Shown here in pieces: positions 28,996 through 60,576 of a stretch of 64,000 nucleotides of DNA. Below the pieces are notes generated by a model. That model was not told the DNA's origin. It did not search any database and saw only the letters and a list, made by a program, of their open reading frames with translations. This DNA comes from Astrocystis sublimbata (taxonomy: Eukaryota; Ascomycota; Sordariomycetes; Xylariales; Xylariaceae), in the NCBI GenBank assembly GCA_022453515.1, contig JAJNNY010000062.1, forward strand, positions 124,001-188,000. The letters are read 5' to 3'. A program made the position numbers and the translations under genes. Every line of letters starts with the position of its first letter. Position 1 is the first letter of the stretch.

Positions 28996-30613
28996 ATGTC
29001 AGACACACACGACACGCCATCCTCGGCGTCTGTCACGGACGTTGAGGCTGGAGGAGAGTCACCGAGAATTGGGCACAGACGAGACCCGGAGAAGCAGCAA
29101 GAAGAGGAGGACCCTAACCTGGTGACTTGGAACGGGCCTGACGACCCAGAGAATCCGCAAAATTACACTTTCCGCTATAAGTGCTTCATCACCGGTGTCT
29201 GGATCTACGGCAATCTGTGCTCCACGATTGCCAGCAGTATCTGGGGTAGTGGTTCACGCCAAGTCGCAGCCGAGTTCAACAAGAGCGCCATCGTTGTGAC
29301 TTTGGGTATCAGTCTTTTCCTATTGGTAAGTGTCTCTTCGCCTGGTCGCGTACTCGCCCTGCTGCGAACACACCTAGCTGTAGATCTACATTGTCAAATG
29401 ACTAACATGACTGCTGTAGGGTTTCTCGATTGCGCCACCGTTATGGGGTCCCATGTCAGAGCGTTTTGGTCGCAAGTGGCCCATGACCATTGGCATGCTT
29501 CTCTTCACAATCTTCACTATCCCAGTAGCTGTCGGTAAAAACATAGAGACGCTCCTGATATCCCGGTTCTTCCAAGGAGCCTTCGGCTCGGCCCCATTGT
29601 CTCTGGCCGCTGGTGGTATCGTCGACATTTGGAGCCCGACGGACAGAGGCATCGCCATCGCCGCCTGCATTGGTACCATCTTCGGATCGCCAGTCTTGGC
29701 TCCCATCATCGGTAACTTCGTCGCTGCCTCATATCTGAAGTGGAGGTGGCTGCACTGGATCAGCGCTATTCAAGGAGGTAGTGCTGTCTTGCTGGTGCTT
29801 GTCGCTCTCCCCGAAACGTTGGGCAGGAAGATCCTGCAGAAACGCGCTGCTAAGCTGCGCAAAAGCGGCGAGAAACCGGAAGCGAGGACCATCTTCGACA
29901 ACCAGAAGCATATGGGCTTGCTAGACGTGGCGCGTATCTACTTCCTACGCCCCTTCTCACTGTTGGCCACCGAGCCCATCCTCGTCTTCATCACCATCTA
30001 CCAGTCCTTCATCTACGGAATTCTGTACCTTGTCTTCGTATCGTATCCGATCGAATACATCGAGATCCGTCACTGGCAAGAAGGCATCGCTTCGTTGCCG
30101 TTCCTCGGCTTGTTGATAGGGGTCTTCATAGGAGCTGCCGGTGTCATCTGGCACACCAAAACCAAGTTCGCGGCGGCCGTTCGGGCAAATGGTGGCAAGG
30201 CGGTTCCCGAACAGAGGTTACCCACCATGATTGTCGGAGGTCTCATCGTTCCTATCGGTCTGTTCATCTTTGCTTGGACCGCGGCTCCTTCGATCCCGTG
30301 GCCTGGCCAAGTCATTGGTAGCATCCCCACAGGCGCTGGCATGTACATGATCTTCGTGCAGTGCTTCAACTACATTGTCGACGTCTATGCCCCCATAGCG
30401 AACAGCGCGCTCGGCGGCAACATGTTTATCCGAAGTTCTTTTGCTGCTGCCTTCCCGCTTTTTGGTCCCTACTTATACCACAACCTGGGAGTGTCTTGGG
30501 CAACAAGTACTCTTGCTTTTATAAGCATTGCGTTGATCCCCATTCCCATCATATTCTACATCTACGGCGCCCGTATTCGTTCTTGGTCCAAGAACAGCGT
30601 TTCCACCGATTAG
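28996..30613 (+). CDS. MFS transporter, DHA1 drug:H+ antiporter type, likely pathway exporter
   Basis: Exon 1 (28996-29325, 110 codons), a 94-nt intron (GTAAGT donor, CTAAC/ATGAC branch, GTAG acceptor at 29419), exon 2 29420-30613; 507 residues. The ATG at 28996 is chosen because the open frame upstream begins only with TTG. The acidic N-terminus ends in the fungal DHA1 hallmark LVTWNGPDDPENPQNY. The loop 2-3 motif GPMSERFGRK (motif A) follows the intron. About 12 hydrophobic segments are visible, including GGIVDIWSPTDRGIAIAAC and LPFLGLLIGVFIGAAGVIW. By position beside the FAS/citrate synthase genes it is the probable exporter of the alkyl-tricarboxylate or alkylitaconate product (inference). 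Confidence 0.85.
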
Positions 30614-31248
30614 ATCATAGATCAAGGATTTACACGGAGCGCGATTTGCTTTTGGGAAGACCGGAAGCCAGGTGCGCTAGCCCGCCTAACGTAGATCATT
30701 TTCGGCTCTAGCGCTAAGGGGCGGCTGGGAACGATATTAGGACAATTTTCATAGATTTAGCGTTCGTTATTTATAGTGTAGAATCAGCATTTGCATTCAC
30801 TGAGCAATAGAACTTACAGTTGAAGCTCCAGACAACCTTACCGTGTACTGACTTGTGCCGAGGAGATTCGTTATACCGAGATGAATCCGTATATCATGCA
30901 TGGCGCGGAGTGAATAGGTTTTGTAAATGAAATGCCATACTTTACTCTGTCTTTGACCTGACCGACCGTACTATATAAGTACAAATCCTATTGGAGAATG
31001 AGGTTGGAGACAGCTGTTGCCCGGGGATACTAGTCCTAGCGATGCTACTGTTAGCATACGCGTCGCAACCGTTCACATTGCATCCATGGTAAGATGTAAC
31101 AGTATCGGTTGGTAACGATCATAATGGATAATGACCCAATTTTGTCCAGACAATGGCATTATATGTATGTACCCCGTATTCCCAAAATGCTACGTCAAAT
31201 CGTGAGTGTCCATCAGTTCCTATTGCGGCCGTGCTGTCTGTCATGTGC
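30614..31248. other. Convergent spacer between the MFS and regulator genes
   Basis: 3' flanks of two converging genes. AT-rich, with no frame of interest. Confidence 0.5.
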
Positions 31249-33929
31249 TTATTCCCATCTGCTTCCCTGCGCGAAGGCTCCCTGCAGGAAATCTAAATTG
31301 AAATTCCAGTTACCATTACCATTACCCGCCAGCGGCCCCGAACCCAGCTCCAACTGAGGATGTGCGGCGGGGAATGCCGAGTTGGTGGTTTGGTACACCG
31401 GGGATAAGGGTGCAGACATCATTTCCACCCGCTCCGGGTCCGGTGTGAAGAAGCCAAAACTTGTCATCTCCGCGTGTCTCGGTCTGCTGGCATTCATCTG
31501 GCCTCCAAAGTCCTTCTCCTCTTGGCGCGACGGCCTCATTCGTGAGATGTCGACGCTCAGGCTCCCCCGGCTCGACGGGACACGGGAACTATCGAACATG
31601 TCCGGCGTCGGTGAACGAGTGGCGACGGCGCTCCTGTTGCGCGACGAACCTGGTCGCCGACTATCCTTCCCACTAAGCTGCTGTGGTGGCTGCTGCTGTT
31701 GCTGCGGTAGCATGAATCCCCCTTGGCCCCTTGCCGATGACGGACGAATAAGCATTTCCACTAACGTCTCTAGTGTCTCGATAGCCCAGACGAGGCCTTT
31801 GCCAAGGCGAGCGTAAAAGATGTGCGACTGCTGGTCATACTGTAGCATTTCGAGCAGCGCGCATACGTCGCGTAGCAATGAGACGTCGGTGAGCAAGGTT
31901 GTCGTCGCGTCGAACTCGTCGTAACTGCTAGCCAGGCGGAATGCAACAAGCTCCGCGAACGCTACCATTGGGTACCGCCTGAACAACCTTGCCAGCAGAG
32001 CAAAGCGCGCCGTGTTCAATGGCGCACTGCGCACCTCGAGGAGCAGCCGGAGACTGGAGCGCGCGAGATCGCGGATCTTGCTCTGGCTGTCCTCGTTGTC
32101 TTGGTCACGCCGAAGTGCGAGGATCTGCGAAACCTGGAAGCCATACTGCAGCTCGATGCGTGATAAGTGCGCGTCTTCTGCATCGTCTGCATGAGTTGCA
32201 CAAGATGGGGACAGCAACGTGGCATGGGCTTGTGCGAACTTGTCTAGCGAACCGTTCACGAACTGGACTTGGCGGAATCGGGCATCGGTGCTAGCATGGG
32301 TTGCACGACAGCTGTACAGGTTCAAGTAGATCTCCTCCCAGATCGTCATGAGGTGGTCGAATGCGTCGCTGATGGGAATCTCGTCGTTGCTCAGGTCCCG
32401 CCTGAGGCCTACGCGCTGATCGGAATCGAAGAGATGCAGGTCGCACGGCTGGCCAGTCATGAAGACCCGCTGCTTGTCCATGGCGTAGAGTATGCGAAAG
32501 AGTCGGCCATGTGTGCCTGCGACGTCATCTTCCTCGGTCTGGCGACGGTTTTTGGATCGGTGAATGCCCATCAAGCGACCGACTTGGCATGCGGCCTGAC
32601 ACACTCGCTCAGCTGTGGCGTCGCTATAGAACTCCTGTGCAGCCAGGTTCTATTTCCAGCGGTGTTAGTAATCTGCTCCGCGACCGGGGTGTCTGTCTCT
32701 GGTATTTCTAATACATACCAAAGTCATTAGCGCCTGGAGGCTGACGATGCTAGGGGCCATGAAAGCATCTAGATTGTTGATGGCGCGATCGCAATTCCTC
32801 AAGAACGAGGGCAGTATGTCATCGTTGGGCACGCGCGAGGCCGAAGAGGCACGACCGGTCTGGATCTCGAGACTCAGCTCTAAGAGAACGATGTTGTTTA
32901 GAATGAGGGCTCGGGCTTTGCTGTCCTGTAGCTGCTTATCGCTATAGTGTGCATCGATGGCATGGTGCAGCTTTGACTCATTGAAGATGGGTGTCCGTGT
33001 GTTCACGTTGCGAAGATAGCCGTCGACGAAGAGGTTCACCATCAACCGCGGAGGTGTGGTGATGGGACTCATGTCATTCGACGGGGTAAGGTCCTGGTAT
33101 GTCTGGAAGGGAAAGGTTTCCAGTTTCCGCTGCAGTGTGGCCCTCGCCACCGGATCCTGCAAGCCTCGACCAACCTTTGCTCTGCCGCTTTCTTGACCCT
33201 CGCCCCCCTGATCTGGGTTGGCAAGCAAGCCCTTCGCCTGATGCAACATTGACTTCATCAAGACGAGCGGTGCAGGATAGCTATACAGACGTTCACCACC
33301 CTTTTCCAGCTCGATAGTTTCGCTTGGGGGCATGTTTGCGGCCCGAGAGTCCGTTGAGCCATGACGATCATCTAGGCTATGTTGTTGAATCAAGTCGGGG
33401 AGGCCTGATGCCGCTGGGAGTGGTAAGGACTCAGGACTTGTGTGATTGGAACGAGGCGAAAGATAGGCGGTTTGTGTGGAATGTGCACAAGGTCGTGAGG
33501 TGATCTGGCGGGTAATCTCTGTGAGAACACCCAGAGTGTGGCCGACCTCATCGAGTTGCTTCCTCACATCAGAGAAGTCATCGCGACTATCCAGTCAGTA
33601 TAACGGAGGCGTCTCCAAGTGGAAGTGTAATCTTACAGTTGCTTCATGTGGTTGACACGTTTGAGTGTATTTGACGAGTTACACTCAAAGCCACCTTTCC
33701 GACAGTTAGAACATTCTGGTTGTTGGCGGTCGCAGCGGACTTTGCGCAGGCGACATTGGTCGCAGGCAGCGGGGAGAGGTTCATTCTGCTCTTCTCGATC
33801 GTTCTCGAGCCGGGGTCGTTTCCGGCTGTTATCTGTGCCTGTGCGTGTAGCGAAAACCGAATCATTCTCCGGTTCCAGTTGTGATACCTGAGCATCGCCC
33901 CTCGGCGAAACCGGTCTAGAGCTGAACAT
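31249..33929 (-). CDS. Zn2Cys6 fungal-specific transcription factor, likely cluster regulator
   Basis: Exons 33929-33637, 33586-32719 and 32649-31249 join in phase through introns of 50 and 69 nt (GTAAGA/GTATGT donors, ACTGAC and ACTAAC branches); 853 residues. The binuclear zinc cluster is perfect: Cys56, 59, 66, 73, 76 and 83 in CDQCRLRKVRCDRQQ followed by PECSNCRKGGFEC. A nuclear basic stretch (SRKRPRLEND) precedes it. The middle region (LMVNLFVDGYLRNVNTRTP, VSLQALMTL, QAACQVGRLMGIHR) is the fungal_trans regulatory domain. The C-terminus is Gln/Ser/Pro-rich (LPQQQQQPPQQLSG), typical of an activation region. It lies between the MFS and FAS alpha genes, so it is the natural candidate for the pathway-specific activator. 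Confidence 0.85.
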
Positions 33930-35855: not shown

Positions 35856-38800
35856 TCAAATTCTGCCCGAGGGGTCCAGGAAGAAGGACTCTCCCACTTT
35901 TCCGCTCTCCTTCCAGACTGATTGGTCCTTGGCCTTGAAGACAGAGTTGCTCATCATGGCCCGCTGGAAAGCCCTATCGGCTCGACGACCCCTCTCTTCC
36001 ACGCGTCTACGGTATGAATCGAACGTGGCGGCGGACCATGCAGCAAACAGAACGCGTGGGGCCACGCCGATAACGATGCCACCCTTCTGGCCGAATCCAA
36101 AGGACGTCAGCATGAAGGCCTTGATATCAGGGCACTCGATGGCCTCCGATGGATACAGCAGATGAGGGAAGGCTCGCAGTGCCTCATCGACGTCATCTGC
36201 GTTGCGGTTCCCAGGCACAAGTCCATGCTCGAGTATTTGCAGACAGCCGTTTAGCATCCAAGCGCCGGCGCCGCCCTTAGGGTGACCCGTCAAGTATTTT
36301 TGGCAAACCACTAGGAGGGGATTGCCCTCGGTTCGGCCGAGGTGGGCCATCTGTTGGTTGATGACAGAGCTCTCGTTTTTATCGTTGGCCTTGGTCGATG
36401 TTCCGTGGAAGGACGCTACGCCAATGTCGTCGATAGTGAGCCCCCACACCGCTAAGGCGGCTCGCATGGGGGAGATCGAAGGATTGAGTTGGCGTATGTC
36501 ACCGTTCCAAGTCCATTGTGCGGTTGATTTCCGGCAAGCCACTTCCGACTCGACCGCCTCATCATACGTAGCATCTTGAGCAGTGGCAGGTAATGTGGTG
36601 CCGGCGTATTGTGACCGCCGCCATTCCTCGATGGTACCCAACTCCTGTTCTAGTTTCGACCGGCGATAGTTGATGTCCAACAACGGCGACTGTGCAGCTG
36701 CATGCGTCTCTCGTGCCGCTGTCAGAACACCCTGACCTGGCGCAGGCACAGAGCGACCTACGCCATCGCCTGCTAGTTGCGTATGCGCTACAACTGCGTA
36801 GATGGGGAGACCCATCTGTAGGGCTAGCTCGGCGCTCATCACGATCTGAACGCCACAGCCTGCAGATTCGACGAAACCAGCACGCGAAGACGCTGTTGGC
36901 CGTGACATTTGAGATGGAAGGAAACCTTTGGCAAGCTCGTGCTGGGCCACCATGGTCGCCTTCATGTTGCTGAATTCGGTAGAGAGCTCTTCCTGTAGAT
37001 CGTCTGTGCCTCCCACCACTGCAATCTTGACACTCCGTGATTTGATACTGTCACACGCGATGTCTAGAGACTCTATGGCCGTTGCACATGTGCCTGTGGG
37101 TGTCTTCAAGGGCCCTGTAGCACCGAACAGTAACATGTTTGTCCAGGCAGCCATGGAGTTGAGGAACGTTTCCTGCAGGATGTCACCCTTAACCGGATTG
37201 TCGCGGTAACGGCGACGGTACACTAGAGAAAGAGTTAGCCAATACTGTTAAGAAAGATGGACACTTGTGGCGATTTGGAAAGGGATGGTTTTAGGGGCTA
37301 CTTACTATCGCGCGTAGACTTCAGACTACCAGCACCGGAGCCTACGTAGACACCCAGCTCGGATACGTGAACGTACTTGTAGAACTCGAAAGGATCTTCG
37401 ATGCCGGCACTGAACATGGCCTCGCAAACACAGCAAAGCACATATAAAGTGACAGGGTCTACTTGAGCAATGATGTCCTCGGGAATACCATAAGTAGCGG
37501 CATTCCAGCCCTTGGGAAGCTGTCCGGCCACGGATTGATGGCCGCTCGTCGACATGGGTACGAGGAAAGTAGCACCGCGCTTGACAATGACAGTCCAGTT
37601 GTCCGAGTCGGAGCCCTCGGGGTAGATGTTAACTTTGTCGCCATGGCGAAGCTCAAACGATTGAGCGAGGGACTCGGAAGTGCTGAACGCCGGAAGGTCT
37701 TCGTCCAACACGACTTCTTCGAGGAGCTCTTTCTTTGAGGGATCATATTCGTCGAAGCCTTCGGGTTCTACGAGTCGGATGCCGGAGTGGCTCAGAATCC
37801 ACTCTCCATAGCGTGCTTGAAACTCATGCTCCGCTACAGGCTTTCCGGACTCAACATCTACCCAGCCGACGTAGGGCTCACCGTTGACAGGCCCGTCCAG
37901 GTGCTTGACGAGGCCCATCATCCAAGCCATCTCCGTCAAGCCATCTTGGTTCAGCTTGCCACGGCTCTCTCTCTGCCACCTAGTACGCGAGGAGCCTAAT
38001 GGCCCAAGCTCGGAGAACCCAACAACGACTGGAGTCCGGCTCATGTCTATCATGCCGGCTAGACTTTGCAGGTCTTTGGTCATATCCTTATGCTCTGACA
38101 GCTTCGGGAAACCTTGGCGAATATTGGAGCGCTTCTGCTGTGAGCCTAGTTTCACCTTGTCTGTAGCCGCAGGTGTCTTGGATCCCTTGAGTACTTCGTC
38201 ATGTTGTTGTCTCTCAGCAACAATCGCTTGGCACTCTCGGCGCTTGTCTGTGATGCCCCCCCTTATGGCCATAACCTCTTCTTTGAGATTCTGGAAGCCC
38301 ATGAGACCACCACTTAGCTCGGCATAAACAGGGTCTACATCAGACTCCGCGATTATTGAGGGGCAGAGCAGGGCAAGAAGATTGAAGGCCATCTCCCCCG
38401 CTGCGAAGGTCATGACGCCGAGCTTCTCGATGCCTTCAGCAACAATGTTGTTCGCGTTCATTAAGCCGGTGCCTCGTGTCCAGCCAATGACAGCGCCGAT
38501 GACTGAAAGATAGCTCGACCAGCGCTCGGAGTAGTAACGATTAAATAAAGTCTCAAGACCAATCTTGGACTCTGAGTAAAGACCGTCACCGCCGAAGTCA
38601 CCGTGGTTAGGCGACAATGGCAAAACCACTGTGGTTGGTCGCCCGGTGAAGTTCCTCCTCTCCTTCTGCCGCTTGATGTATCCCATCATGCGTAGGACAT
38701 TGGTCAACATAGCCCGATGCGCCAGCTCGGACCGAGCATCGATCTCGTCGATCTCGCGCCCCGGCTCCGGGATAGCGGCAAAAGGGATGACGAAGTCGAG

Positions 38801-40994
38801 GTCCAACCCGAGGCCTTTGCTTTCATCATAGATGTGCGCGACAAGGTCCTCGACGTCCTTCTTACTTGCGGCGTTGAAAGGGAGGAGTATAAGCTCGGAG
38901 CCCCGCGCTCCCACTTCCTTATACGCCTGCGCCATGGCCGGGCCAGAAGAAGCGGGCGATCGACTTGTCGTGACTATCACTCTCGCGCCACCGGCCAACA
39001 AGCCACGGACCACCTCCATGCCGATGGAGCCGACACCAGCGCCCGTGACGAGAGCTGTCTTGCCTGCGTAGCTGACGCCTGACGTGTTTCCTGCGAAGAT
39101 GCCTTCAAGGTATGTGTTTGTGAGCTGGCGGTCATACTGCCATGATCCGCTGGTCTTCCGGAGGCAGTGGACGAAGCTGCTGCATGGGCCGTTGTGGCGT
39201 GTCGAACTCACAACGTCGTAGTACGATGGCGGTTCTGACGACAGCCCCGACTTCGTCACTCTAGGCGTTTCTGTATAATTGATTTTGCCATCCTCGTCGA
39301 CAGATGTTCGCGGGGCCATTGCTGGGTCGGAGAATCGGTAGACGGGTGATGCTGCCTGTTCCGTGTTTGGCTTTGACTTGAGGAGATCCTCGGCCAACCT
39401 CCTGGATGGTCCCGCCTTTGATGCGTGATGGCGCAGCATCGACTCCAACTCCGATGTCCAGCGATTGGTGATCGCCTGAAGTCGTTGCGGAGAAACCGAT
39501 GCAGCATTTTCTTGCAAGAGCCGCGCGACGTCCTCGCGCGCCCAGTTCCACCATGATGAGTAGCGTCGCTCTTTCAGGGGGTCAAATATCCCCCTCATTC
39601 CAGCGAAGAACTCTTCGCCGAGTTCAGCATTGAGAATGTCTAGCTGTTGTTGAAGCTCATCGCTGTTCTGGACATCAGCGGCCGTATTGGGTGTGATATC
39701 AACGCCGAGGTGTTGAGCGAGGACCTGCAATTGCTTTCGCAGCACAGATTCCTGCTCGTTCTTCAGCTCTTTGAGACTCGCATCGTCTACCATAACGGCA
39801 GAGCCCTGCGAGCCTTGGGACCCTTGCCCAGGGGTTGTGGTGGGCAATGAAACGCCAGCTTGTTTAGCGTAGCGAGCGACGGCTTTGTCGATAAAGTCGT
39901 GCACTTGAGCAACGTCCGATAACCGCGAAGGGGGCTCGATGGTGATGCAGAAACACTCGAGGGCCAATTGGCAGTCGGGTCCCAATCCCCAGCGGGTTTC
40001 CAGATAGGCCGACAATTCCTTCGGGCCGAAGCCACCAGGCATCTTGGCCGAGAGGAATCGTTCAACAAGCTTCTTCGATGACTTCCCAAGCTTTCCTGAG
40101 AAACCTGAGGCGAGCTTCTCGCTAAGGCTTTCCAGGGAAGCACTCTCGCTGCCATCGGGCATATCGCCGAACTCGGCACCCAGGTCGCCGATAAGCTCAT
40201 TTTGAAGGGTTGATTTGCCTAGGATGAATGGTAAGTCTACGATGCAAGAGGGTTATTGAAAGGATAGGTTGGTCTTACCACCTGACAAAGCTGAAATTGA
40301 TTCAGTTATAGGTACCTCGTCCAACGCCTTCCTCAACTTCTGTGCAACTAATGCAACGACTATATCAAGAGGAGTGAGCGGTTTGTCGACGGTGGACGCC
40401 GCTGTGGGTGGTGCAGCCGCCGCCGCAGCAGGTGGTGGTTGTGAAACTTGGACGGGGGCGGCGGCCGGCGTCGCGGGTGCAGGAGCAGGTGTTGATGATG
40501 CAACTTCTTCTGCAGGGGCAGACGAAGACTCTTCTTCATAATCGTAGTATATCTTTCGTGCATCATCGGCGTTGGTGATGCTGAGGAATTCGCGTTCGAT
40601 CGACTGGGCGACATCTTTGTCGCCAACTAGCCTCTTGGCAGACTTCTTAGCCATGGGTGCCAGAACACCAGCAGGGCCTATCTCGATGACACGTCGGACA
40701 TCCCGATTTGAGGCTAGTAGCTGCTCTTGTGTATTTATCCTGAGCATGTTAGTAAACAATTTAAAGGCGTTCCGATGTCTTGTTGTGACTCAGTAAAGGC
40801 TTACCATTGTACTGGGAAAGCGAATTGATATCTGTAAACAACGAGGTCAGCATGTTGGATTGGAGTATTAGTTGATGGTAGTTCAAGTAGTGAAAGACGA
40901 ACGTTAATAACTCTATCAACAGATTGTACGCTATCTGTTGCTTTGGGTCTCTCTTTTCTTCGGCGGCATGGCCGGACTTGGTAGTGGTCGTCAT
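35856..40994 (-). CDS. Fatty acid synthase alpha subunit, secondary-metabolism type without PPT domain
   Basis: Exons 40994-40903, 40831-40805 (27 nt), 40739-40279, 40218-37306 and 37222-35856; 4860 nt, 1619 residues, all phases consistent. Domain order: N-terminal MPT strand (IAYNLLIELLTYQFAFPVQW, IEIGPAGVLAPMAKK); Ala/Pro linker; ACP with phosphopantetheine Ser196 in GGKSTLQNE; ketoreductase (ALVTGAGVGSIGMEVVRG near 580, YSESKIG near 740); ketosynthase with Cys1210 in GTCATAIES and His motifs FHGTSTKAND and GHPKGGAGAWM. The chain stops at FFLDPSGRI, exactly where canonical Fas2 continues into its phosphopantetheinyl transferase domain. So the ACP must be activated by a separate Sfp-type enzyme. 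The dedicated hexanoate synthases of aflatoxin-type pathways are similarly short. The partner is FAS beta at 49992-56317. Confidence 0.92.
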
Positions 40995-45733: not shown

Positions 45734-47314
45734 ATGGGAAAACACAGTGCCGAGGTGGTGTTCGACGAGACCAACGACGAGAACAGCGGTGTGACCGCGA
45801 CCCTCTGCAACTGGATCGTCGGGCTCGAGAAGAAAGACATCCCAGATGAAGTCCTAGAGCGGGGCAAGCACCTGATCCTGGATGGTATCGCGTGCGGCCT
45901 TGTTGGATCTCACGTCCCGTGGTCTGAGCAGGCCGTCGATGCCGTGCTGGCCTATGAGCCTGAGGGACAATGCAGCCTGATAGGATACGAAGAAGTGAGT
46001 TTTTTTTTTAAACGAAAGAGAATGATGCCTTGGATCAAGTACTAACGATGTGCCAATTAGAAACTGGGCCCTCTAGCCGCCGCTGTCTTGAATGGCGGCT
46101 TCATCCAAGCGACAGAGCTGGATGACTACCACAGTGTCGCGCCCCTGCACTCCGCCAGCGTTGTTCTTGGCTCTCTCTTCGCCGCGGCGCAGGTGAAGAA
46201 CGTCAAGGTGCGCGGGGGGAACCCGTCCAGCGGACAAGACCCCTCTCGCACCGTCTCCGGCATTGACTTCCTCACGGCCGCCATCGCCGGCTTCGAGACC
46301 GGTCCTCGCTCCGGCATGGCAATCCACGGGACCGACCTCCTAGTCAGGGGGTGGCACTCGGGCGTCGTCTTCGGCTGCCCTGCGGCGGCCGCAGCATCCT
46401 CCAAGCTCCTGGGCCTATCGGCCGTCGACACCGAGTCAGCCATCGGCATCGCCTGCACGCAGGCCTGCGGCCTCATGGCGGCGCAGTTCGAAGGCATGGT
46501 GAAGCGCATGCAGCACGGCATCGCGGCGCGCAACGGGCTGTTCGGCGCCCTCCTCGCCCGCAACGGCTACGTCGGCATCAAGAAAGTCTACGAGCGCCAG
46601 TACGGCGGCTTCCTCAACATGTTCAGCCAGGGCACCAAGAAGGAGCCGCGGTACGACGTGCGCGAGATCACAGCCGGGCTCGGCGACGTCTGGCACACCT
46701 CGCGCATCCGCTTCAAGCTGCACGCATGCGTCGGCGGCTGCCACGGGCTCGTCGAAGCCGTGGAAAGCCTGCAGAAAGCGCACCCGCAGCGCTTCACGGC
46801 CGAAGGCCTCAAGGGCCTCAAGAGCATCAAGGTCGGGCTCTCGGAAACTATCTTCCACCACGATGGCTGGGCGCCGCATGAGCGCCCGCTGTCCAACACG
46901 GGCTCGCAGATGTGCGCGGCCTACATCAGCGCCACGCAGCTGATCGACAACCAGGTCCTGATCGCGCAGTTCGCCGACAGCCAGCTCAACCGCGAGCAGG
47001 TGTGGGAGCTTGTGAATAAGACTACGTGTCACCATGATGCCCAGTTCGACAAGCCGAACCACCAGTGCGGCACTCACGTGTTGGCTGAGTTTGAAGATGG
47101 AACTACTGTTGAGGAGACTGTGCAGATGCCCAAGGGCTTCGACCCGCCGATTACGAACGAGGAGATTCGGGGCAAGTACAGGAAGTTGGCTGCTTCGGTC
47201 ATTGACCAGGAGCGCTTAGAGAGGATTGAGAAGTTGGTGCTGGAGATAGATCAGCTCGATGATGTGTCGGAGCTACTTCAGATATTAGCAAAGCCTGCCA
47301 GGAGTGCAGTATAG
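45734..47314 (+). CDS. MmgE/PrpD-family enzyme, cis-aconitate-decarboxylase (CadA/ACOD1) type
   Basis: Exon 1 is 45734-45994 and exon 2 is 46061-47314, with a 66-nt intron (GTGAGT donor, ACTAAC branch, TTAG acceptor); 504 residues. It follows the fungal itaconate-forming CadA layout closely. Features are VTATLCNWIVGL, ERGKHLILDGIACGLVG, ATELDDYHSVAPLHSAS (Asp109, His111, His117), GWHSGVVFGCPAA, ACTQACGLMAAQ and MVKRMQHGIAARNG (active-site Lys/His). It is clearly different from the second PrpD homologue 300 bp downstream, which has the 2-methylcitrate dehydratase pattern. Predicted role: decarboxylation of an alkyl-cis-aconitate to an alkylitaconate, in the cytosol (no targeting peptide). Alternative: another dehydratase. 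Confidence 0.87.
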
Positions 47315-47637
47315 ACATGATATAGAGAATTGAATACCTTTTTTCACTGTTATATGAGAAATTACCCTATTTATCATGAAGCGGCATTGAAAAGTGACAG
47401 CGAATTTGTACTACTATTGATATGCTATGCTAGCAGCCTTTTGATCTGAAGTGTTGACGTGACTAGAACTGGAACTCTAAGTCGCAACACCTCACATGCA
47501 TTGTTCCAGTTACTTTTCACACATGCAAGCACCTTAATTGATCTGATAAATGAAGCTTTATATAAGTTCATAATCATAACTAAAAACGATCTCATCTCTA
47601 TACCCTATTCTATATACGCCGTCCCAATGCTACCTAA
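47315..47637. other. Convergent spacer between the two PrpD-family genes
   Basis: 323 bp, AT-rich, with overlapping 3' untranslated regions likely. No frame of interest. Confidence 0.5.
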
Positions 47638-49184
47638 TCATGACTGATGGAAAAGATCGATAAAGTTGCTTGCCGGTAACGAATCAAAGTCCGACCTATC
47701 AAAAGTCTCAATGATCTGATCGACCTTGGTCTTGGGCATTCTGAGCCCGAGGTTGCGAATAGCCTTCTTCCGCACCATCGGGAAACTCTCCTCGTTGCGG
47801 GCCGGGTGACCCAGAGGGAAGTCGAGTTTCGTGTTGAATGTCGTTCCATCATTGAGGGTGAAGTCAAGAGAACATGCGACGCTGCGAATATCAGGATTAT
47901 GGTAGTCCTTTGTCATTTGCACGTCTTCCTCCATGGTGATGACCTTCCTCAGAGCCTCGACACGGGGATCCGTAGAGAAGGGGCTGTCGTTCTGGTAATC
48001 CTCCGTCTCGACCTCAGCCCCGTTCTTCAGCAACACCACCGCCATCATGTATCGCAAGCAGTGATCCCTGTCCGCCGCGTTATGCAACGGGCCATTCTTG
48101 TTGATGATGATCATGGCCGCCTCCTGGACGCGCACATGGATGCTCTTGATATCCTTGACGGGGTCGAGGCCGCGCTCCTGCAGCTTCTGGCTCGCGGCCA
48201 TGGTCGCTTCCACCGCAGTTAGACCGTGGCCTTCCGCCGTCAGGACTTTGAAGATGGCATTCTCAACCACCCAGGTGCCGAACGGCCGCGGGAGCTCGAA
48301 CGCGTTGCCCTTGTTCAGGACCTCGTAGAAACCCCATCGCGCGGCCGTCAAGGGCGTCTTGATGCCGGGCTGACCTGCTTTCGCGACCGTCGCGAGATGT
48401 ATGGCGCGCATGCAGGCATCGCCGGCCGACCAGCCCTTGCGCGGCCCCGTGTTAGGCGACTGCCGGAATGTGCGCAGCGGGTGGCCGTCGACCCAGGCGT
48501 GCGAGACCGCTGAGCGCGCCTCTTCTCGCGATAGCCCCATCAGCCAACAGACTACTGCTGTGGATCCGATCTTGACCAAGATGGTGTGGTCGAGGCCGAC
48601 GCGGTTGAATGCGTTCTTGACTTGGAAGCAGCCCTGGATCTCGTAGGCTTTTATTAAGCCGACCAGGACCTGCTTCATGGTGATCACCTCATCTTGTTTC
48701 CCCCTCGCCAGTGCATCTCTTGTGAGCACATCTGCAATAACGAGGATAGCGCCAAGGTTGTCTGTAAGCTTGATTAGCATATGTGCGTCTGTGAATGTGA
48801 TTGATATAAGTGTAATTTTGACTTACCAGAGGGGTGGCCCCATTCTGCACCAGCGAACGCATCATTGTGATCAAGGTAACGGATCATCGCACCCATGTTG
48901 AAGGCAGCCTGCAGGACATCCATCTGGTATGGCGTTCCCGGCAGTTTGAAACCGCCAGCGACGGAGCCTGCACCAGGCAATAACGGCTTAACTAGGGCTT
49001 CACATTCCTTGCTCAGAGCCAGACTCTCAATGGCGACTCCAAAGGAGTCAATGAGCGCCATCTTGGCGCGGGCCAGAGCTGGCTCGGCGGTAACCTCATA
49101 GTCGTAGGCATAGTCGACGACCTTGTCGATGACCTCATCATAGGGCCTGTCCGAGTTGTCGTCTGGCTTTGGTAGGGGTGCCAT
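47638..49184 (-). CDS. MmgE/PrpD-family enzyme, 2-methylcitrate-dehydratase type (predicted alkylcitrate dehydratase)
   Basis: Exon 1 is 49184-48827 and exon 2 is 48761-47638, with a 65-nt intron (GTAAGT donor, GCTAATC branch, ACAG acceptor); 493 residues. Diagnostic PrpD segments: IRYLDHNDAFAGAEWGHPSD across the intron, GLDHTILVKIGSTAVV, SHAWVDGHPLRTFRQSPNTG, RKGWSAGDACMRA and GPLHNAADRDHCLRYM. The N-terminus (MAPLPKPDDNSDRPYDEVID) lacks a mitochondrial presequence, unlike the housekeeping methylcitrate-cycle enzyme. Predicted reaction: dehydration of alkylcitrate to alkyl-cis-aconitate. It is transcribed towards the CAD-type gene and shares a divergent promoter with FAS beta. Confidence 0.88.
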
Positions 49185-49991
49185 ATTGTGCGTCTGTGCT
49201 TGATTGATTGATTAACTGATTGACTGATTGATTCCGTAATTCGTATAATTATGTCGCCTTCTTCTTTTGCTTAGCGGGGACCCGAGAAGCATGCGTGCGT
49301 GCGTGCACTCGCAGCAGCTTCCCGGCCACCATTATAATCTTCTCACGTTGCAAAAAAGAAACATTGCAAATTATCGAGGTTGGATTCTTGGCAGACGATT
49401 GCTTACCTGGTGGTGTGCGGTGCATGGCCCGCTTACTCAGTATTTGAGTGGCCGTCTGAGCTGGTCGGGGGCTCGGGGCCGCGCCCGAATCGTGCGCTCG
49501 GCCATGCTCGGCACCATACCGAAACCGTCCGGGTTGCTGTTCGGCCCAAGGGTGACCGATGATAACATGGACTGACTCTGCAGCAAACGGCCGATCAACT
49601 TCTGAAATCGCCTGCAGGCACAGATCCGTAAGAGCGCTGGGAAAGAAACTGTCAGCTTTTCTTATCGTAGCATGCGAACTTGCAGGAAACAATGGAGCTC
49701 CATCGCACGAATGAGACGGCACATTTCGTAACTGGCTTAGCATATGAATCGACGTTGCAACCTAGGGACTTACTACTATAGCCATAGCCAGTTCAACTCT
49801 TAGATATAATACTAGTGTCAACTGAATGCTTCCCACAAAGAGTTGCCTATTATCAGACAATTGTTGTTGACCAACTTCTCGCTTGACTCTCGTGCTTTGT
49901 TTTTGCTCGAAACCAATCTGTTCCACTGTCCCCCCCCATTATACCCCCTCAAGTACGAATAGTCATTTTTTCACGAAGAAAGAAACAACTC
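49185..49991. promoter_or_regulatory. Bidirectional promoter: alkylcitrate dehydratase (-) / FAS beta (+)
   Basis: About 800 bp. A GATT tetranucleotide repeat lies at 49201-49232. A CGG/CCG-rich block at 49440-49560 includes CTCGGGGCCGCGCCCGA and ACCGAAACCGTCCGG (49518-49532), comparable to blocks in the other cluster promoters. The 164-codon minus-strand frame (49743-49249) across it is not supported as a gene. Pyrimidine-rich C runs precede the FAS beta start. Confidence 0.5.
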
Positions 49992-52900
49992 ATGACATCT
50001 CTTCATTCACACACGTCTAGCATCTCGAGTTGGGCGACTTCAACGCCCTATACACACACAAGACACACAAGCAAGATGGATACAGAAACAAGTCCATCCT
50101 CGTACTACGAGATCAACCCCACCCCAGAGCTAACCGAAACCATCGGCAAGTTCATCATATCATATCAAGATGTCGAGCAAGAATTACCTCTGGGTTTATC
50201 AGACGCCTACCAACTCCTCGAACACCGGAAGGCGTTCATGATGTCGTTGGCGTCGCCAGAGAACGAAGGCACAAAATTCCTATCCGGTGCAGCTCTAGCC
50301 TTCAGATTTCTCGACTTCCTCCTAGGCCGCAAAGTGCCTCCGGGAGCACTTATACGCTTATTTTACGCCGTCCACTCCGAGATCATGGGAAGAAGGGACG
50401 TACACGATTTCATACGCGGACTGCCCGACGGATCGTCGACGCAGAAGTCGATATTGCGCACCTTCATGCTGCTGCAGGCGAAGCTACCCTTCCCGCTGCT
50501 GTCGAGTCCGAGCGCGCTGCCACGCTTAGCAACAGACCCGGATACCTCGATTCTGATGGCCTTTGGCGGCCAGGGCGCTGCGAACGGTGCTTGCGTCGAA
50601 GAACTAGCAGAGCTGTACTCGTTGTACCAGCCCCTTGTCGCGTCCTTGACGGTGTCGCTGGGTGCGGCTCTACACTCGCTCTCGCGACATCCCGACACAG
50701 ATTCCTTCTACCTCGGCCGCGAGATCGACGTGTTAGAGTGGCTTGCCGACCCATCGTCAATACCGGACAAGACCTTCATCGCGAGTGCTGCTGTGAGCTT
50801 CCCCATCATCGGACTTACGGGGCTGCTGCACTATTCCATCATCTGCAAGCTGCTGGGCAAGACGCCTGGCGAGATGGCGGATTCCCTGTCGGGCATCACC
50901 GGCCACTCTCAAGGCATCGTCATCGCCGCCGCAGTTGCAAAGTCACATTCGTGGGAGTCGTTCTTCGACGAGGCGAAATGGGCCGTCGAACTCCTGTTCT
51001 GGATGGGCTACGAAAGCCAGGTCGCCGCCCCTGGGTCTGCACTCACCCCGGCGATGGTCGACGACAGCATAACAAATGGATACGGATCCCCTTCATACAT
51101 GTTGTTAGTGCGCGGCATCACCCGCGACCACCTCGAACGATTCATGAATACCAACAACAAGCACCTGCGAAAGAACGAGCAGCTCCACCTATCTTTGATC
51201 AACGGCCCAAGAGACCACGTCGTCGCAGGTCCATCAAGGAGTCTCCAAGGCCTGATCACAAGTCTAAATCAGGTCCGCGCAGCCGACGGCGCCGACCAAA
51301 GCCGGATTCCCTACAGCAAGAGAAAGCCGGTGATCATGTTCCAATACCTGCCCATCAGCGCGCCCTTCCACTCGCCGTATCTGCAAGCAGCAGCAGAGGA
51401 AGTGAAGAGCCACATGGCCAAGTCGTCGGGGACCGCGACGGTGAGCAGTCTCCGCATCCCAGTCTTCCACACCAAGGACGGAGCCGACCTGAAGAAAACA
51501 TACGACCCCACGACGGATGTCACAGGCCTCCTCGTCGACGCCGTCACCACCAACGTCGTGGACTGGCCCCGGACGCTGCGCTCCGAAGGCAAGAAGAACG
51601 CCTCGCACATCATAACGCTGGGCTCGGCGCGTTTCAGCGACATGGTGCACAAGACCGTCGACGGCCACGGCGTGCGCGTCATCGACGGCGTGCGGATCGA
51701 CGCCGCAGACACCTCCATCATCGGCAGCAAGGCGGAGCTGTTCACCCCGAGCCTTTCCGACCTCGTCGTGTCCACATCGTCATGGAGCGAGAAGTTCAAG
51801 CCGCGAGTAGCGAAATACGCCGATGGCAGCTACCACGTCGAGACGCGCCTGAACAGCGTCCTGCGGGCCCCTCCCATCATCACAGCTGGCATGACGCCGA
51901 CGACGGTCCCGTGGGACTTCGTGGCCTCCGTCATCAATGCCGGCTACCACATCGAGCTCGCAGGCGGCGGCTACCACAACGCCGCCGCCTTCGAGGAGGC
52001 CATCGACAAAGTCGCCGGCAGCATCCCTATTGGGCGCAGCATTACCTGCAACCTGATCTACGTCGACCCCCGGGCCATCGGGTACCAGATCCCGCTGATC
52101 CGCCAGCTGACCCGCCGCGGGGTGCCCATCGAGGGTCTCACGATCGGCGCAGGCGTCCCGTCGCCTGAGATCGCGGCCGAGTACATCGAGACGCTCGGCA
52201 TCAAGCACATCTCCTTCAAGCCCGGCTCGCTGCGCGCCATCCGGGAAGTTATCGAGATTGCCAAGAAATTCCCGTCGTTCCCCATTATCCTGCAATGGAC
52301 GGGCGGCCGTGGCGGCGGGCATCACTCGTGCGAGGACTTCCACGAGCCCCTGCTGGAGATGTACAGCGAGATCCGGCGGCACGAGAACCTGTACCTCGTC
52401 GTCGGCAGCGGTTTCGGCAACGGCGCTGGCATCCTGCCCTACCTGACCGGAACCTGGTCTCTTGAGTTCGGCAGACCCGCCATGCCGTGCGATGGCGTCC
52501 TGCTCGGTAGTCGCATGATGGTCGCCACAGACGCGCACACCTCGGCGGCTGCGAAGAAGCTCATCTTGAAGGCCCCTGGCGTCGACAGTGCGCGGTGGGA
52601 AAACAGCTACCTCCAGCCCGACGTGGCCGGCGGTGTCCTCACCGTCACCTCGGAGATGGGCCAGCCTATCCACAAACTAGCTACGCGCGGCGTGCGCCTC
52701 TGGAAGGATCTGGACGATACTATCTTCAGCCTGCCCAAGGCGGAGCGCAAGCCCGCTCTGCTGAAGCGGAAAGATGAAATCATCCGCCGCCTAGACGCAG
52801 ACTATGCAAAGCCGTGGTTCGGACACAACGCCATCGGCGAGCCAGTCGAGGTCGAAGACATGTCGTACACGGAAATCATCTCGCGGCTGGTCGAGCTCAT

Positions 52901-55900
52901 GTACGTCAAGCACCAGCAGCGCTGGGTGAACCCGTCGTACCTCGAGCTCGTCGCCGACTTCACGACGCGGTCTTTCGAAAGAATGAGCTGCTGCACGCTG
53001 GAGGCGTCGTGGTTTGACGATCCGCAGACCCTGGCTGAGAAAATCACCAAAATCTGCCCGGACATGGCGCAGCAGATCGTGCACCCCGAGGACGTGCGCT
53101 ACTTCATCCAATCGTGCAAGAAGCGCGGGCGCAAGCCGGTGAACTTCGTCGTAGCCCTCGACGACGACTTCGAGCACTGGTTCAAGAAGGACTCGCTGTG
53201 GCAGTCGGAGGACATCGAGGCCGTCATCGGACAAGACCCAGAGCGCGTCTGCATCCTGCAGAGCCCCGTTGCTGTCCGCCACTCGACGCGAGACGACCAG
53301 TCCGCGAAAGACATTCTGAATGAAATTCACGGCGAGATTACAGCTCTGATGCGCGGCTCGCCAGACCTGATGGCGCAGCCCAAGGTACGCCGCGCATCGA
53401 CTCCTGCGGCAGATCCCGCTTCAGCAAACATCGTCGTAGACAAGACCCAAGGCCACATCATCTTCAAGGCTACGTCACCCAGCGATCTCCCTACTCAGGA
53501 AGCGTGGATCGCGCACCTGCAGCCTTATCTCAGCGCATCGACGCTAGCTCTCGTGCGCGAGGAAACAGTATTCGAATCATCCTCTAAGCGCAGCCGGCCA
53601 AACCCCTTTCACCGCCTCTTCGCGCCGCAGCAAGCGTACGCCCTCGTCCTCGACACGACCTCCAAAGAGCTGCGTCTCCGTGACGAAGCCACGGGACAAA
53701 CTCCCGTGGTGATCAGCACGAGCACGCAATCGCCCCAGCGCCTGCGCGTGCAAGTGACATACAAAGACGCCTCCGTCCCCACCGGGGGCAGCGCCTCCCT
53801 AGTCCTCGAATGGGAATACGACGAGCGCGCGCGCCAGCTCGTGGACGTGACGCCCGGCCGCGACGCACAGGTGCAGGAGTTCTACGCGCAGCTGTGGCTT
53901 TCGCCCGGCAGCGCCGGTCGCGAAGGAAAGCTGCGTGATGTATTCTCCGGCGGCGCGTTCGCGCTTACGCAGAAATTGCAGAGCCGCCTGCATGCCGTTG
54001 TTTCGCATGCTTTTGTCGGCGCGGCTGCCACTAGTCCGACGGATGTGCTCCCGCTCGAGGCGGCGGTGATTGCGGCGTGGGAGGCGGTCGTGCGCCCGAT
54101 TTTGATCGACGATGTGCAGGGCGATCTCATGCGCCTCGTGCATCAGTCTATTGGCATCGAGTACGTTGGCAACGCAGAGCCTTTGCGCGTCGGAGAGGCG
54201 GTGACGTCGGATTCTTCTATTCGGTCTATTACTGTTGAAGCTTCGGGTAAGTCCATCGCTGTGGATGCCAGGATCCTGCGCGAGGGCCAACACGTCGCTA
54301 CGGTGACTTCGAAGTTCTTCATCAGGGGCAAGTTCGCGCAGCATGAGACGACGTTCCAGGATAAGGAAGAGGCCGATGTCGAGCTGAAGGTCGCCACTAA
54401 TATCGACGAAGCCGTCCTCCGCGACCGCAGCTGGCTAAGCCTCGACAACCCCTCCGCGCCCCTGCTGGGCAAGACCCTCGTTTTCCAAGTGCGCACGAGC
54501 AGCCAATGGACGAACTCAAACTCCAGCTCCGCCGCAGACCTTGAAATCCGCGGTGTCGTGGAGGAGAAGTTGTGGAACGGATCGCGGAAGAAGATCGGCA
54601 CCGTCGCCTTTGCGGCCGCTGCCAGTCACGGAAACCCCGTCACCGAGTTCCTGCGGCGCAAGGGCGAGACGACGAGCAGCAGAGTCGATCTCAAAAATCC
54701 GGGCTGGAGCGGGAATGCCGAGGTCTCCGTCGTGGCGCCGTCGCATACCCATCTGTACTCCAAGGTGTCGCGCGACTGCAACCCCATCCACGGCTCGGCT
54801 GTCTTCGCCGAGGTCGCGGAGCTGCCGGGCCCCATTATGCACGGCATGTATAGCATGGCTGTGGCCCGCCGCGTCGTGGAGGACATGGTGGTGCCGGGCG
54901 AGCCGGAAAGGCTGCGGAGGTTCGATGCGGAGTTTTTGGATATGGTGAGGCCGGGGGATAGGCTCACGGTAAGGAACGCGCATGTCGCTATGAAGAATGG
55001 TAATATGATCTTTGAGGTTGTTGCCAGACTTGAGGAGTCCGATACTGAGGTCCTTCGCGCGGAAGCGGAGATCGCGCAGCCGTCCACGGCGTATATCTTT
55101 ACGGGCCAGGGGAGCCAGTCTGTGGGCATGGGGATGGCGCTTTATGATAGCTGCCCTGTTGCCAAGTCCGTCTATGATGAGATGGATGCTCACATTAGGG
55201 AGCTCTATGGTAAGCTGAACCTTTTCTTTCTTCTTCTATCCCCATTTAACCCATTTTGACTCGAGACTGACCGTTCCCAGGATTCTCCATCCTCAAGATC
55301 ATCCGCGAGAACCCGACCGAGATCACCCTGCACTTCCGCGGGCGCGAGGGACAGAAGATCCTCTCCAACTACCTAGACCTGAAGACAGAGCTCCCCACCG
55401 AAGACGGCGGGCGACGCGTGGCCCCCATCATCCCCGGGCTGAGCCGCGCCTCGACCTCCTACACCTTCTCCGAGGCGCGCGGGCTTCTGTACTCGACGCA
55501 CTTTGCGCAGCCGGCCATTATCCTGGTAGAAAAGGCGACTTTTGAACACATCCGCGCGCGCGGTCTCGTGCAGGAAGGCGCTATGTTCGCGGGCCACTCG
55601 CTCGGCGAGTACGGCGCGCTGTCGGCCATGGCGCCCTTTGTGGATTTCAGGGATATGCTCAGCACGGCGTTTTATCGCGGCTTGATGATGCAGTTTGCTA
55701 TTCCGCGGGATGAGAACGGGCAGACGGGGTTCAGCATGATGGCGACGAATCCGGGACGGGTTGGGAAGGAGTTCAATGATGATGCTTTGAAAGCGCTGGT
55801 CAAGCACATCTCGGCCGCAAGCGGCTCGCTCCTCGAAATCGTCAACCTCAACGTCGAAGGCGACCAGTACGTGTGCGCAGGCCACGTGCAGAACCTGAGC

Positions 55901-56317
55901 TGTCTGACCAACGTGCTGAATGCCGTTGCGACGCACAAGATCTCGCCGGCTGCTATTGAAGAATTCTTAGCCGCTCCATTCCCATCCTCTTCTGAGACCA
56001 CTTTCGGCACCTTCATCCAAGAAGAAATCTCACGCTCCAAGGCCCTGCCGCTCGACGTCGACATCCCGCGCGGCAAGGCGACCATCGTGCTCAAGGGCAT
56101 CGACGTGCCGTTCCACTCGGCGCGCATGCGCTTCTGGATCCCGACCTTCCGGAATTTCTTCCTCGCGCATGTCAAGCCAGAGGATATTCGGTTGGATCAG
56201 CTGGGTGGGAACTTTGTGCCGAATGTTGTTGGCAAGCCGTTCTCGTTGGATAGGGATTTCATAAGGGAGGCGGGGCAGATTACGCAGAGTGCGGTATTGG
56301 AGGGGCTTGCGTGTTGA
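49992..56317 (+). CDS. Fatty acid synthase beta subunit
   Basis: Exon 1 is 49992-55209 and exon 2 is 55281-56317, with a 71-nt intron (GTAAGC donor, ACTGAC branch, CCCAG acceptor). It has 2084 residues from the first ATG, or 2056 from the ATG at 50076 (MDTETSPSSYYEINPTPE); the start is undecided. Domain order (numbering from 50076): acetyltransferase with GITGHSQGIVI (Ser278); enoyl reductase with HIELAGGGYHNAAAFEEA, LQWTGGRGGGHHSCEDFH and VVGSGFGNG; dehydratase region; MaoC-like hot-dog with SRDCNPIHGSAVFAE; malonyl/palmitoyl transferase with FTGQGSQSVGMGMALY and AGHSLGEYGALSAM (Ser near 1818). All domains look intact and the length is normal. Partner of the FAS alpha at 35856-40994, together supplying the acyl-CoA for the citrate synthase homologue. 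Confidence 0.92.
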
Positions 56318-60569: not shown

Positions 60570-60576
60570 GCCTACC

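What the first reader, a model, noticed from the sequence alone, without database searches (positions are those of the whole stretch)
28996..56317. Compact alkylcitrate/alkylitaconate-type gene cluster
Seven adjacent genes encode both FAS subunits, a citrate synthase homologue, a PrpD-type dehydratase, a CadA-type decarboxylase, an MFS exporter and a Zn2Cys6 regulator. This is the minimal set for acyl-CoA + oxaloacetate -> alkylcitrate -> alkyl-cis-aconitate -> alkylitaconate plus export. Related pathways are known (hexylitaconate/alkylcitrates in Aspergillus niger, sporothriolide, oryzines). Here no 2-oxoglutarate oxygenase, P450 or ligase sits among the genes, so the end product may be a simple alkylitaconate. 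Chain length is unknown.
Basis: partly seen in the sequence, partly recalled or inferred. Interest (0 to 1): 0.85.

Follow-up and report, generated by a model that had tools for sequence, protein, structure and literature searches.

The report
Fungal alkylitaconate (piliformic acid-type) gene cluster
This is a compact fungal gene cluster that most likely joins a medium-length fatty acid to a citric-acid-cycle building block to make a simple alkyl-itaconate such as hexylitaconic or piliformic acid; clusters of this type are already described in close relatives, so it is a new example of a known thing.

Summary
In detail: seven adjacent intact genes fill 28996-56317 (MFS transporter, Zn2Cys6 regulator, both FAS subunits, citrate synthase-like, CadA-like and PrpD-like proteins). 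The host is Astrocystis sublimbata (Xylariaceae): its CadA-like protein is 100% identical and its contig has the same length, 205,841 bp. Related citrate synthases often share a contig length with a CadA-like or FAS alpha relative (28 of the 46 closest hits, 7 of the next 39, 0 of the last 35). Best reading: octanoyl-CoA + oxaloacetate -> hexylcitrate -> hexylaconitate -> hexylitaconate/piliformic acid. All steps, chain length and final tautomer are inferred. New member of a known kind; low interest.

The parts
28996..30613 (+). MFS transporter, putative exporter; exons 28996-29325, 29420-30613; 507 aa
   Evidence: model; PF07690 E 2e-32
31249..33929 (-). Zn2Cys6 transcription factor, putative pathway regulator; exons 33637-33929, 32719-33586, 31249-32649; 853 aa
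   Evidence: (PF00172 E 2e-11, PF04082 E 4.9e-9)
35856..40994 (-). Fatty acid synthase alpha subunit (carrier, ketoreductase, ketosynthase domains); no C-terminal phosphopantetheinyl transferase domain; 5 exons, 1619 aa
   Evidence: (PF18325, PF18314, PF08659, PF00109, PF02801; no ACPS domain at its end; tree)
41738..43362 (+). Alkylcitrate synthase (citrate synthase-like); exons 41738-42009, 42078-42275, 42344-43099, 43160-43242, 43298-43362; 457 aa; motif PNADLFAA
   Evidence: (PF00285 E 1.1e-98)
45734..47314 (+). CadA/SpoK-like decarboxylase of the MmgE/PrpD family, putative alkylaconitate decarboxylase; exons 45734-45994, 46061-47314; 504 aa; only copy found in the genome
   Evidence: (PF03972, PF19305)
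47638..49184 (-). PrpD-like 2-methylcitrate dehydratase, putative alkylcitrate dehydratase; exons 48827-49184, 47638-48761; 493 aa
   Evidence: (2-methylcitrate dehydratase 1szq E 1.9e-136; TIGR02330 489.6 bits over a cut-off of 458)
50076..56317 (+). Fatty acid synthase beta subunit; exons 50076-55209, 55281-56317; 2056 aa
   Evidence: (PF16073, PF08354, PF17951, PF22235, PF01575, PF00698)

Best explanation
A piliformic acid-type (FAS-dependent alkylcitrate) biosynthetic gene cluster of Astrocystis sublimbata. The dedicated FAS pair makes a medium-chain acyl-CoA, most likely octanoyl-CoA. The alkylcitrate synthase condenses it with oxaloacetate to an alkylcitrate, the PrpD-like dehydratase removes water to give an alkylaconitate, and the CadA/SpoK-like enzyme decarboxylates this to an alkylitaconate (hexylitaconate), which may tautomerise to piliformic acid. 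The MFS protein probably exports the product and the Zn2Cys6 protein probably switches the genes on. Shown here: gene set, intactness, family membership, relationship of three of the enzymes to Xylaria/Hypomontagnella genes, and existence of separate primary-type copies. Inferred: every enzymatic step, chain length, final tautomer, export and regulation. The confidence given is for the cluster type; for a C8 chain I would say about 0.65.
For: Intact genes and domains. Citrate synthase 87-88% identical to the four best hits, from Xylaria and a Xylariales isolate, and 80% to that of Hypomontagnella monticulosa; the window protein and the H. monticulosa one fall in one 20-row clade (99*), apart from the own C107 enzyme. 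CadA-like protein in one 16-row clade (96*) with the H. monticulosa protein and a Seiridium protein named SpoK, apart from an A. niger protein (53%) and a protein named cis-aconitate decarboxylase (52%). FAS alpha in a 9-row clade (99*) with X. flabelliformis and X. hypoxylon. X. hypoxylon, X. flabelliformis and X. longipes are named in PMC8403587 as carriers of the piliformic acid-type cluster. Contig sharing: 23 citrate synthase hits share a contig length with a CadA-like hit, 26 with a FAS alpha hit, 14 with both. Published function of the same enzyme set: A. niger akc genes + hadA give hexylaconitic and hexylitaconic acids (PMC7338620).
Against: No expression or metabolite data. The link between the Xylaria cluster and piliformic acid is itself a proposal ('likely', 'in accordance'), and the paper behind it (Tian et al. 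2020) was not found under the DOI that I recalled. The nearest experimentally proven relative, spo, uses decanoyl-CoA, not octanoyl-CoA. No isomerase gene for the last shift to piliformic acid lies in the cluster. Membership of the MFS and Zn2Cys6 genes rests on position and domain type only. The PrpD-like protein scores as an ordinary 2-methylcitrate dehydratase.
Confidence: 0.9

Rival explanations
1. Same cluster type, but with a longer chain (decanoyl, C10), so that the product is octylitaconate, as in the sporothriolide pathway, with no later oxidation.
For: The proven close relative SpoE uses decanoyl-CoA (PMC8403587). Window FAS alpha is 74% identical to the H. monticulosa copy that I take for spo, and both have Ala and Phe at the ketosynthase positions of yeast M1251 and F1279.
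Against: The nearest relatives are Xylaria species, and piliformic acid is traced to octanoate in X. mali by feeding studies cited in PMC6162547. FAS alpha is closer to X. hypoxylon (81%) than to H. monticulosa (74%).
Confidence: 0.2
2. The cluster ends at the alkylaconitate stage or feeds oxidative tailoring encoded elsewhere in the genome, giving sporothriolide- or oryzine-like lactones.
For: Unlinked pathway genes are known: A. niger hadA lies on another chromosome (PMC7338620). A. niger also makes hydroxylated hexylitaconates, for which that paper proposes P450s.
Against: No dioxygenase, lactonase or intact P450 among the genes as far as tested; the only P450 seen nearby is a fragment. The decarboxylase, absent from the A. 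niger cluster, is inside this one. The rest of the genome was not searched for dioxygenases.
Confidence: 0.12
3. A primary-metabolism neighbourhood (methylcitrate cycle) that happens to lie beside a second FAS pair.
For: The PrpD-like protein passes the NCBIfam cut-off for 2-methylcitrate dehydratase.
Against: The citrate synthase is below the cut-off of all 21 NCBIfam families listed for it, and its motif PNADLFAA differs from the PNVDFYSG of the own C107 enzyme. A second PrpD gene exists on C88, a second FAS pair on C176, and further citrate synthases on C69/C87/C126. Trees place three cluster enzymes with cluster-borne relatives.
Confidence: 0.02

Closest known systems
Piliformic acid-type cluster of Xylaria hypoxylon, X. 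flabelliformis and X. longipes (PMC8403587; assigned there to Tian et al. 2020, not held)
   Same: Same family Xylariaceae; homologous to spo but without dioxygenase and lactonase genes (section text); FAS alpha 81% identical to the X. hypoxylon protein P0256.
   Different: Species; the gene order of the Xylaria clusters could not be compared. The product is proposed, not proven, in both. That P0256 is the FAS of that very cluster is inferred.
Sporothriolide cluster (spo) of Hypomontagnella monticulosa
   Same: Related core: citrate synthase 80%, CadA-like 74%, FAS alpha 74% identical, all listed with one contig length of 1,246,516; I take these for spo because they occur together with a decarboxylase.
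   Different: spo also has a dioxygenase and lactonases and uses decanoyl-CoA; such genes were not found here.
Alkylcitric acid cluster akc + hadA of Aspergillus niger (PMC7338620; citB cluster in PMC4965889)
   Same: Same enzyme types: FAS alpha/beta, citrate synthase, 2-methylcitrate dehydratase, Zn2Cys6 regulator; the aconitate decarboxylase HadA gives hexylitaconic acids.
   Different: hadA is unlinked in A. niger; a dienelactone hydrolase and an aldehyde dehydrogenase are counted in; FAS alpha proteins of A. awamori and A. tubingensis, which I take for this group, are 47-48% identical.
Oryzine cluster (ory) of Aspergillus oryzae (PMC6162547)
   Same: FAS pair, citrate synthase, 2-methylcitrate dehydratase, aconitate decarboxylase, transporters and regulator.
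   Different: 18 predicted genes, with dioxygenase, two lactonases and an acyl-CoA ligase; an A. oryzae FAS alpha (P0283) is 52% identical.
Cinatrin cluster (ctr) of Hypoxylaceae (PMC13178491)
   Same: FAS pair, alkylcitrate synthase, transporter and regulator (first of three parts read).
   Different: No dehydratase or decarboxylase in the gene list given; a non-heme iron dioxygenase and an FAD monooxygenase instead. Four Hypoxylaceae citrate synthases that I took for ctr-like are 38-39% identical and form another clade.

Membership tests
FAS-dependent alkylcitrate (piliformic acid-type) cluster | Dedicated FAS alpha and beta, separate from primary FAS | tested here: met
   Second FAS alpha on C176 (52%, with ACPS domain) and second FAS beta on C176 (40-60% over the part searched) in the same genome
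FAS-dependent alkylcitrate (piliformic acid-type) cluster | Alkylcitrate synthase related to SpoE/OryE/AkcB, not to primary citrate synthase | tested here: met
   Tree of 64 rows; motif PN-A-D-[LF]-[FY]-A in 46 of 46 closest hits. SpoE, OryE and AkcB themselves were represented by proteins of the same or related species, not by their accessions
FAS-dependent alkylcitrate (piliformic acid-type) cluster | 2-methylcitrate dehydratase-like enzyme in the cluster | tested here: met
   TIGR02330 above cut-off; 1szq. No tree was made, so the separate clade of FAS-linked dehydratases reported in PMC8851701 was not tested
FAS-dependent alkylcitrate (piliformic acid-type) cluster | Aconitate decarboxylase-like enzyme in the cluster | tested here: met
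   only copy found in the genome
FAS-dependent alkylcitrate (piliformic acid-type) cluster | No dioxygenase and no lactonases (difference from spo) | tested here: met
   for the seven genes and chosen gap ORFs; a PF10282 lactonase-fold protein lies 12.6 kb upstream of the MFS gene, behind other genes, and is not counted
FAS-dependent alkylcitrate (piliformic acid-type) cluster | Product piliformic acid or alkylitaconate | not testable with these tools
   No metabolite data held
FAS-dependent alkylcitrate (piliformic acid-type) cluster | Co-expression of the genes | not testable with these tools
   No expression data held
Sporothriolide cluster (spo) | Dioxygenase and lactonases in the cluster | tested here: not met
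Maleidride cluster | Highly reducing PKS, hydrolase, dimerising cyclase, PEBP-like protein (list from PMC8851701) | tested here: not met
   None among the seven genes
Cinatrin cluster (ctr) | Non-heme iron dioxygenase and FAD monooxygenase | tested here: not met
Itaconate cluster of A. terreus (cadA, mttA, mfsA) | Mitochondrial tricarboxylate carrier beside cadA | tested here: not met
   No carrier among the seven genes; CadA-like protein lies outside the branch of the protein named cis-aconitate decarboxylase, presumed A. terreus CadA

The most novel reading that the evidence does not exclude
The five enzymes are a complete natural minimum for a free alkylitaconate, and the CadA/SpoK-like enzyme itself decides the tautomer: it both decarboxylates the alkylaconitate and steers protonation so that piliformic acid forms without any isomerase. 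In addition, the ketosynthase residues at yeast M1251/F1279 (Ala/Phe here; Val/Tyr in a second cluster lineage of Nemania and Rosellinia) would help to set the chain length, C8-C10 here and shorter there.
Probability: 0.2. Interest if true: 0.4.

Novelty: new member of a known kind. Interest (0 to 1): 0.2.

Why it matters
It adds a compact, intact cluster from a genus outside Xylaria, with the decarboxylase inside the cluster and no tailoring gene seen. That makes it a clean set for proving which genes suffice for hexylitaconate or piliformic acid, a link so far only proposed in Xylaria, and for testing how a fungal FAS is tuned to a medium chain. The chemistry itself is known.

Tried and rejected
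Primary-metabolism origin of the enzymes: rejected by trees of three proteins and by the presence of separate copies.

A hidden tailoring gene or its remnant in the gene-free gaps: none found in the 9 gap and edge ORFs tested (chosen by eye from the ORF lists, not all ORFs). The region beyond the window to the contig end was listed as ORFs of 130 aa or more; by eye it shows no fatty-acid or alkylcitrate enzyme (no family search was run on it).

Chain length from ketosynthase residues: 119 of 120 closest FAS alpha hits lack Met at the yeast M1251 position (Ala 93, Val 20, Thr 2, Cys 2, Gly 1, Ser 1), while the own C176 FAS has Met. But a solved fungal FAS (4v58) has Val there, and copies that I take for C8 and C10 systems both show Ala/Phe, so the residues do not separate C8 from C10. 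F1279Y in yeast gave C8 in one combination, so Tyr does not simply mean C6. Not used as proof.

Tian et al. 2020 could not be opened under the DOI that I recalled. A search for the host name found two papers, seen as listings only.

A first script stopped on a mistyped splice string and a tree script stopped on a print line after the tree was built; both were repeated.

Not done: homology search and tree of the PrpD-like, MFS and regulator proteins (the three protein searches went to citrate synthase, CadA-like and FAS alpha); genome-wide search for dioxygenases; structure prediction.

Rows left out: trees used 61 of 120 citrate synthase hits plus window and two own paralogues, 53 of 120 CadA-like hits plus window, and 35 of 120 FAS alpha hits plus window, last 1300 residues or less, chosen for names and length. 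The own C69, C87 and C168 citrate synthases were not put in the tree. All three trees are quick ones with SH-aLRT support only, and the tool flagged long branches.
Full report
What is there. Seven genes fill 28996-56317, and no other gene was recognised between them. The gene models have GT-AG introns (one GC-AG in the citrate synthase) and no internal stops: MFS transporter 507 aa, Zn2Cys6 regulator 853 aa, FAS alpha 1619 aa, citrate synthase-like 457 aa, CadA-like 504 aa, PrpD-like 493 aa, FAS beta 2056 aa. Pfam confirms each. Gaps are 635, 1926, 743, 2371, 323 and 891 bp. Seven ORFs chosen from the 1926, 2371 and 891 bp gaps and two at the edges have no Pfam match at E <= 1; the other gaps were not searched. 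Neighbours outside are a Sua5/YrdC-type protein upstream and a PX-domain protein downstream, so the borders are plausible on both sides, though not proven.

Which organism. The window lies in a 42.6 Mb genome of 189 contigs. The CadA-like protein is 100% identical over its whole length to F4808DRAFT_440305 of Astrocystis sublimbata, listed with a contig of 205,841 bp; the window's contig is 205,841 bp. The host is therefore taken to be A. sublimbata (Xylariaceae).

Are the enzymes from primary metabolism? The evidence says no. In the same genome there are a citrate synthase on C107 at 35% identity, copies on C69, C87 and C126 that I take for the mitochondrial type (29-30%) and a related gene on C168 (27%); a second PrpD on C88 at 39-53%; a second FAS alpha (52%) and a second FAS beta (40-60% over the part searched), both on C176. 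For the CadA-like gene the search found no second copy. The C176 FAS alpha carries a C-terminal ACPS (phosphopantetheinyl transferase) domain; the cluster FAS alpha ends without it, and 39 of the 40 best FAS alpha hits list no PF01648 either (the exception is P0255 from Siphonaria). The cluster citrate synthase keeps the catalytic His, His and Asp motifs (assignment recalled), with PNADLFAA where the C107 enzyme has PNVDFYSG. The form PN-A-D-[LF]-[FY]-A occurs in 46 of 46 closest hits. Among the 35 most distant listed hits, 14 have a VD[FY][YW]SG form, 9 an ADLFA form, 1 another form and 11 no such motif. The cluster enzyme is below the cut-off of all 21 NCBIfam families listed for it, whereas the PrpD-like protein passes the one for 2-methylcitrate dehydratase (489.6 against 458).

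Whose relatives are they? Three trees agree (quick method, SH-aLRT support only, some long branches flagged). Citrate synthase: within seven rows (97*) of Xylaria and a Xylariales isolate, inside 20 rows (99*) that include H. monticulosa, the sporothriolide producer. CadA-like: with X. acuta in three rows (96*), inside 16 rows (96*) with the H. monticulosa protein and a Seiridium protein named SpoK; the A. niger protein and the protein named cis-aconitate decarboxylase lie outside. FAS alpha: with X. flabelliformis, X. cf. heliscus and X. polymorpha (99*), inside nine rows (99*) with X. hypoxylon. No tree was made for the PrpD-like protein.

Is the grouping of genes conserved? Among the 120 best hits for each of three proteins, 23 citrate synthases share a contig length with a CadA-like hit, 26 with a FAS alpha hit and 14 with both; in all 35 of 120 citrate synthases. 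By rank: 28 of the 46 closest, 7 of the next 39, 0 of the last 35. The last block contains some Hypoxylaceae enzymes that I take for ctr-like, so it is not a pure primary-metabolism control. Equal contig length is a proxy. Locus tags agree with it in Pestalotiopsis fici (09702, 09705, 09706), Apiospora kogelbergensis (009077, 009078, 009082), Parahypoxylon (009954, 009960, 009961), Chlorociboria (g543, g547), Lecanora (003854, 003865), X. arbuscula (g811, g812) and Monosporascus (006237, 006238). Citrate synthase and FAS alpha tags are consecutive in P. fici, A. kogelbergensis, Parahypoxylon, X. arbuscula, Monosporascus and A. lentulus, as the genes are here; in A. tanneri they are four apart (006620, 006616). 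Between citrate synthase and CadA-like tags lie two, three and five tags in the first three genomes; here no gene was seen between them.

What it most likely does. By analogy with the A. niger akc cluster plus hadA (PMC7338620: abstract and passages read), sporothriolide and piliformic acid (PMC8403587: one section and passages read) and oryzine (PMC6162547: passages and one section read): acyl-CoA from the dedicated FAS + oxaloacetate -> alkylcitrate -> alkylaconitate -> alkylitaconate, then export. Piliformic acid is, by recalled structure, an isomer of hexylitaconic acid, so the same five enzymes could account for it if the double bond shifts.

Chain length. C8 is favoured, because the nearest clusters are those of Xylaria, and piliformic acid is derived from octanoate in X. 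mali according to feeding work cited in PMC6162547. C10 remains possible, because the proven relative spo uses decanoyl-CoA. Ketosynthase residues studied for chain length in yeast FAS (PMC5353594, passages read) were compared. The window has Ala at M1251 and Phe at F1279 (mapping from the coordinates). Among 120 hits: Ala 93, Val 20, Met 1, others 6; Val always goes with Tyr at F1279 (20 of 20), and Ala goes with Tyr in 20 of 93. That paper took F1279Y from alignments with hexanoate-producing FASs, but also reports C8 from one combination with F1279Y. A solved fungal FAS (4v58) has Val at the first position, and copies that I take for C8 and C10 clusters both have Ala/Phe. So there may be two tunings in the family, but this does not decide between C8 and C10 here.

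Comparison with what is known. PMC8403587 states that X. hypoxylon has a cluster homologous to spo but without dioxygenase and lactonase genes, that this fits piliformic acid, and that such clusters occur in X. flabelliformis, X. longipes and Rosellinia necatrix. The window matches this description. One refinement: the R. necatrix copy in the hit lists belongs to a different sub-lineage (FAS alpha 58% identical; separate clade; Val/Tyr type), so 'piliformic acid-type' may cover two lineages. One Nemania isolate (FL0916) is listed with both (contig lengths 914,971 and 140,591). Other papers: PMC4965889 and PMC8851701, passages read; PMC13178491, first of three parts read; PMC12369201, two passages.

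Verdict. Observation confirmed, interpretation supported, novelty low: a new member of a known kind in a species for which none of the listings returned by my searches points to a report of this cluster (open-access library only; the two papers that name the species were not opened).

Noticed in passing
window 60012-60962: Cytochrome P450 pieces: a middle part on the + strand (PF00067 E 2e-4, just under Pfam's cut-off) and a P450-like N-terminal anchor on the opposite strand (by eye; no Pfam hit); looks like a rearranged remnant.
   Followed up: partly
window 61258-62139: TesB-type acyl-CoA thioesterase in two reading frames (PF13622, PF20789), about 5 kb behind FAS beta and beyond a PX-domain gene. 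Probably not part of the cluster, but it could act on acyl-CoA.
   Followed up: partly
L030, L031, L032 (own contigs C69, C126, C87): A citrate synthase, taken for the mitochondrial type, lies on three contigs that are 99.6-99.8% identical over 6.4-8.2 kb; two of them are under 20 kb. Redundant assembly or recent duplication.
   Followed up: partly
window 35856-40994 and FAS alpha hits P0241-P0360: At the yeast M1251 gate of the ketosynthase, 119 of 120 relatives lack Met; Val there always goes with Tyr at F1279 (20 of 20), which includes a second lineage in Nemania/Rosellinia.
   Followed up: partly
window 43363-45733: Gap of 2.4 kb without recognised gene between citrate synthase and CadA-like gene; three other genomes have two, three and five locus tags between these two genes.
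   Followed up: partly
window 15201-16397: Seven-bladed lactonase-fold protein, secreted by its look (PF10282 E 1.3e-43), upstream of the cluster; not counted as part of it.
   Followed up: no
window 42010-42077: Intron 1 of the citrate synthase gene is of the rare GC-AG type.
   Followed up: no
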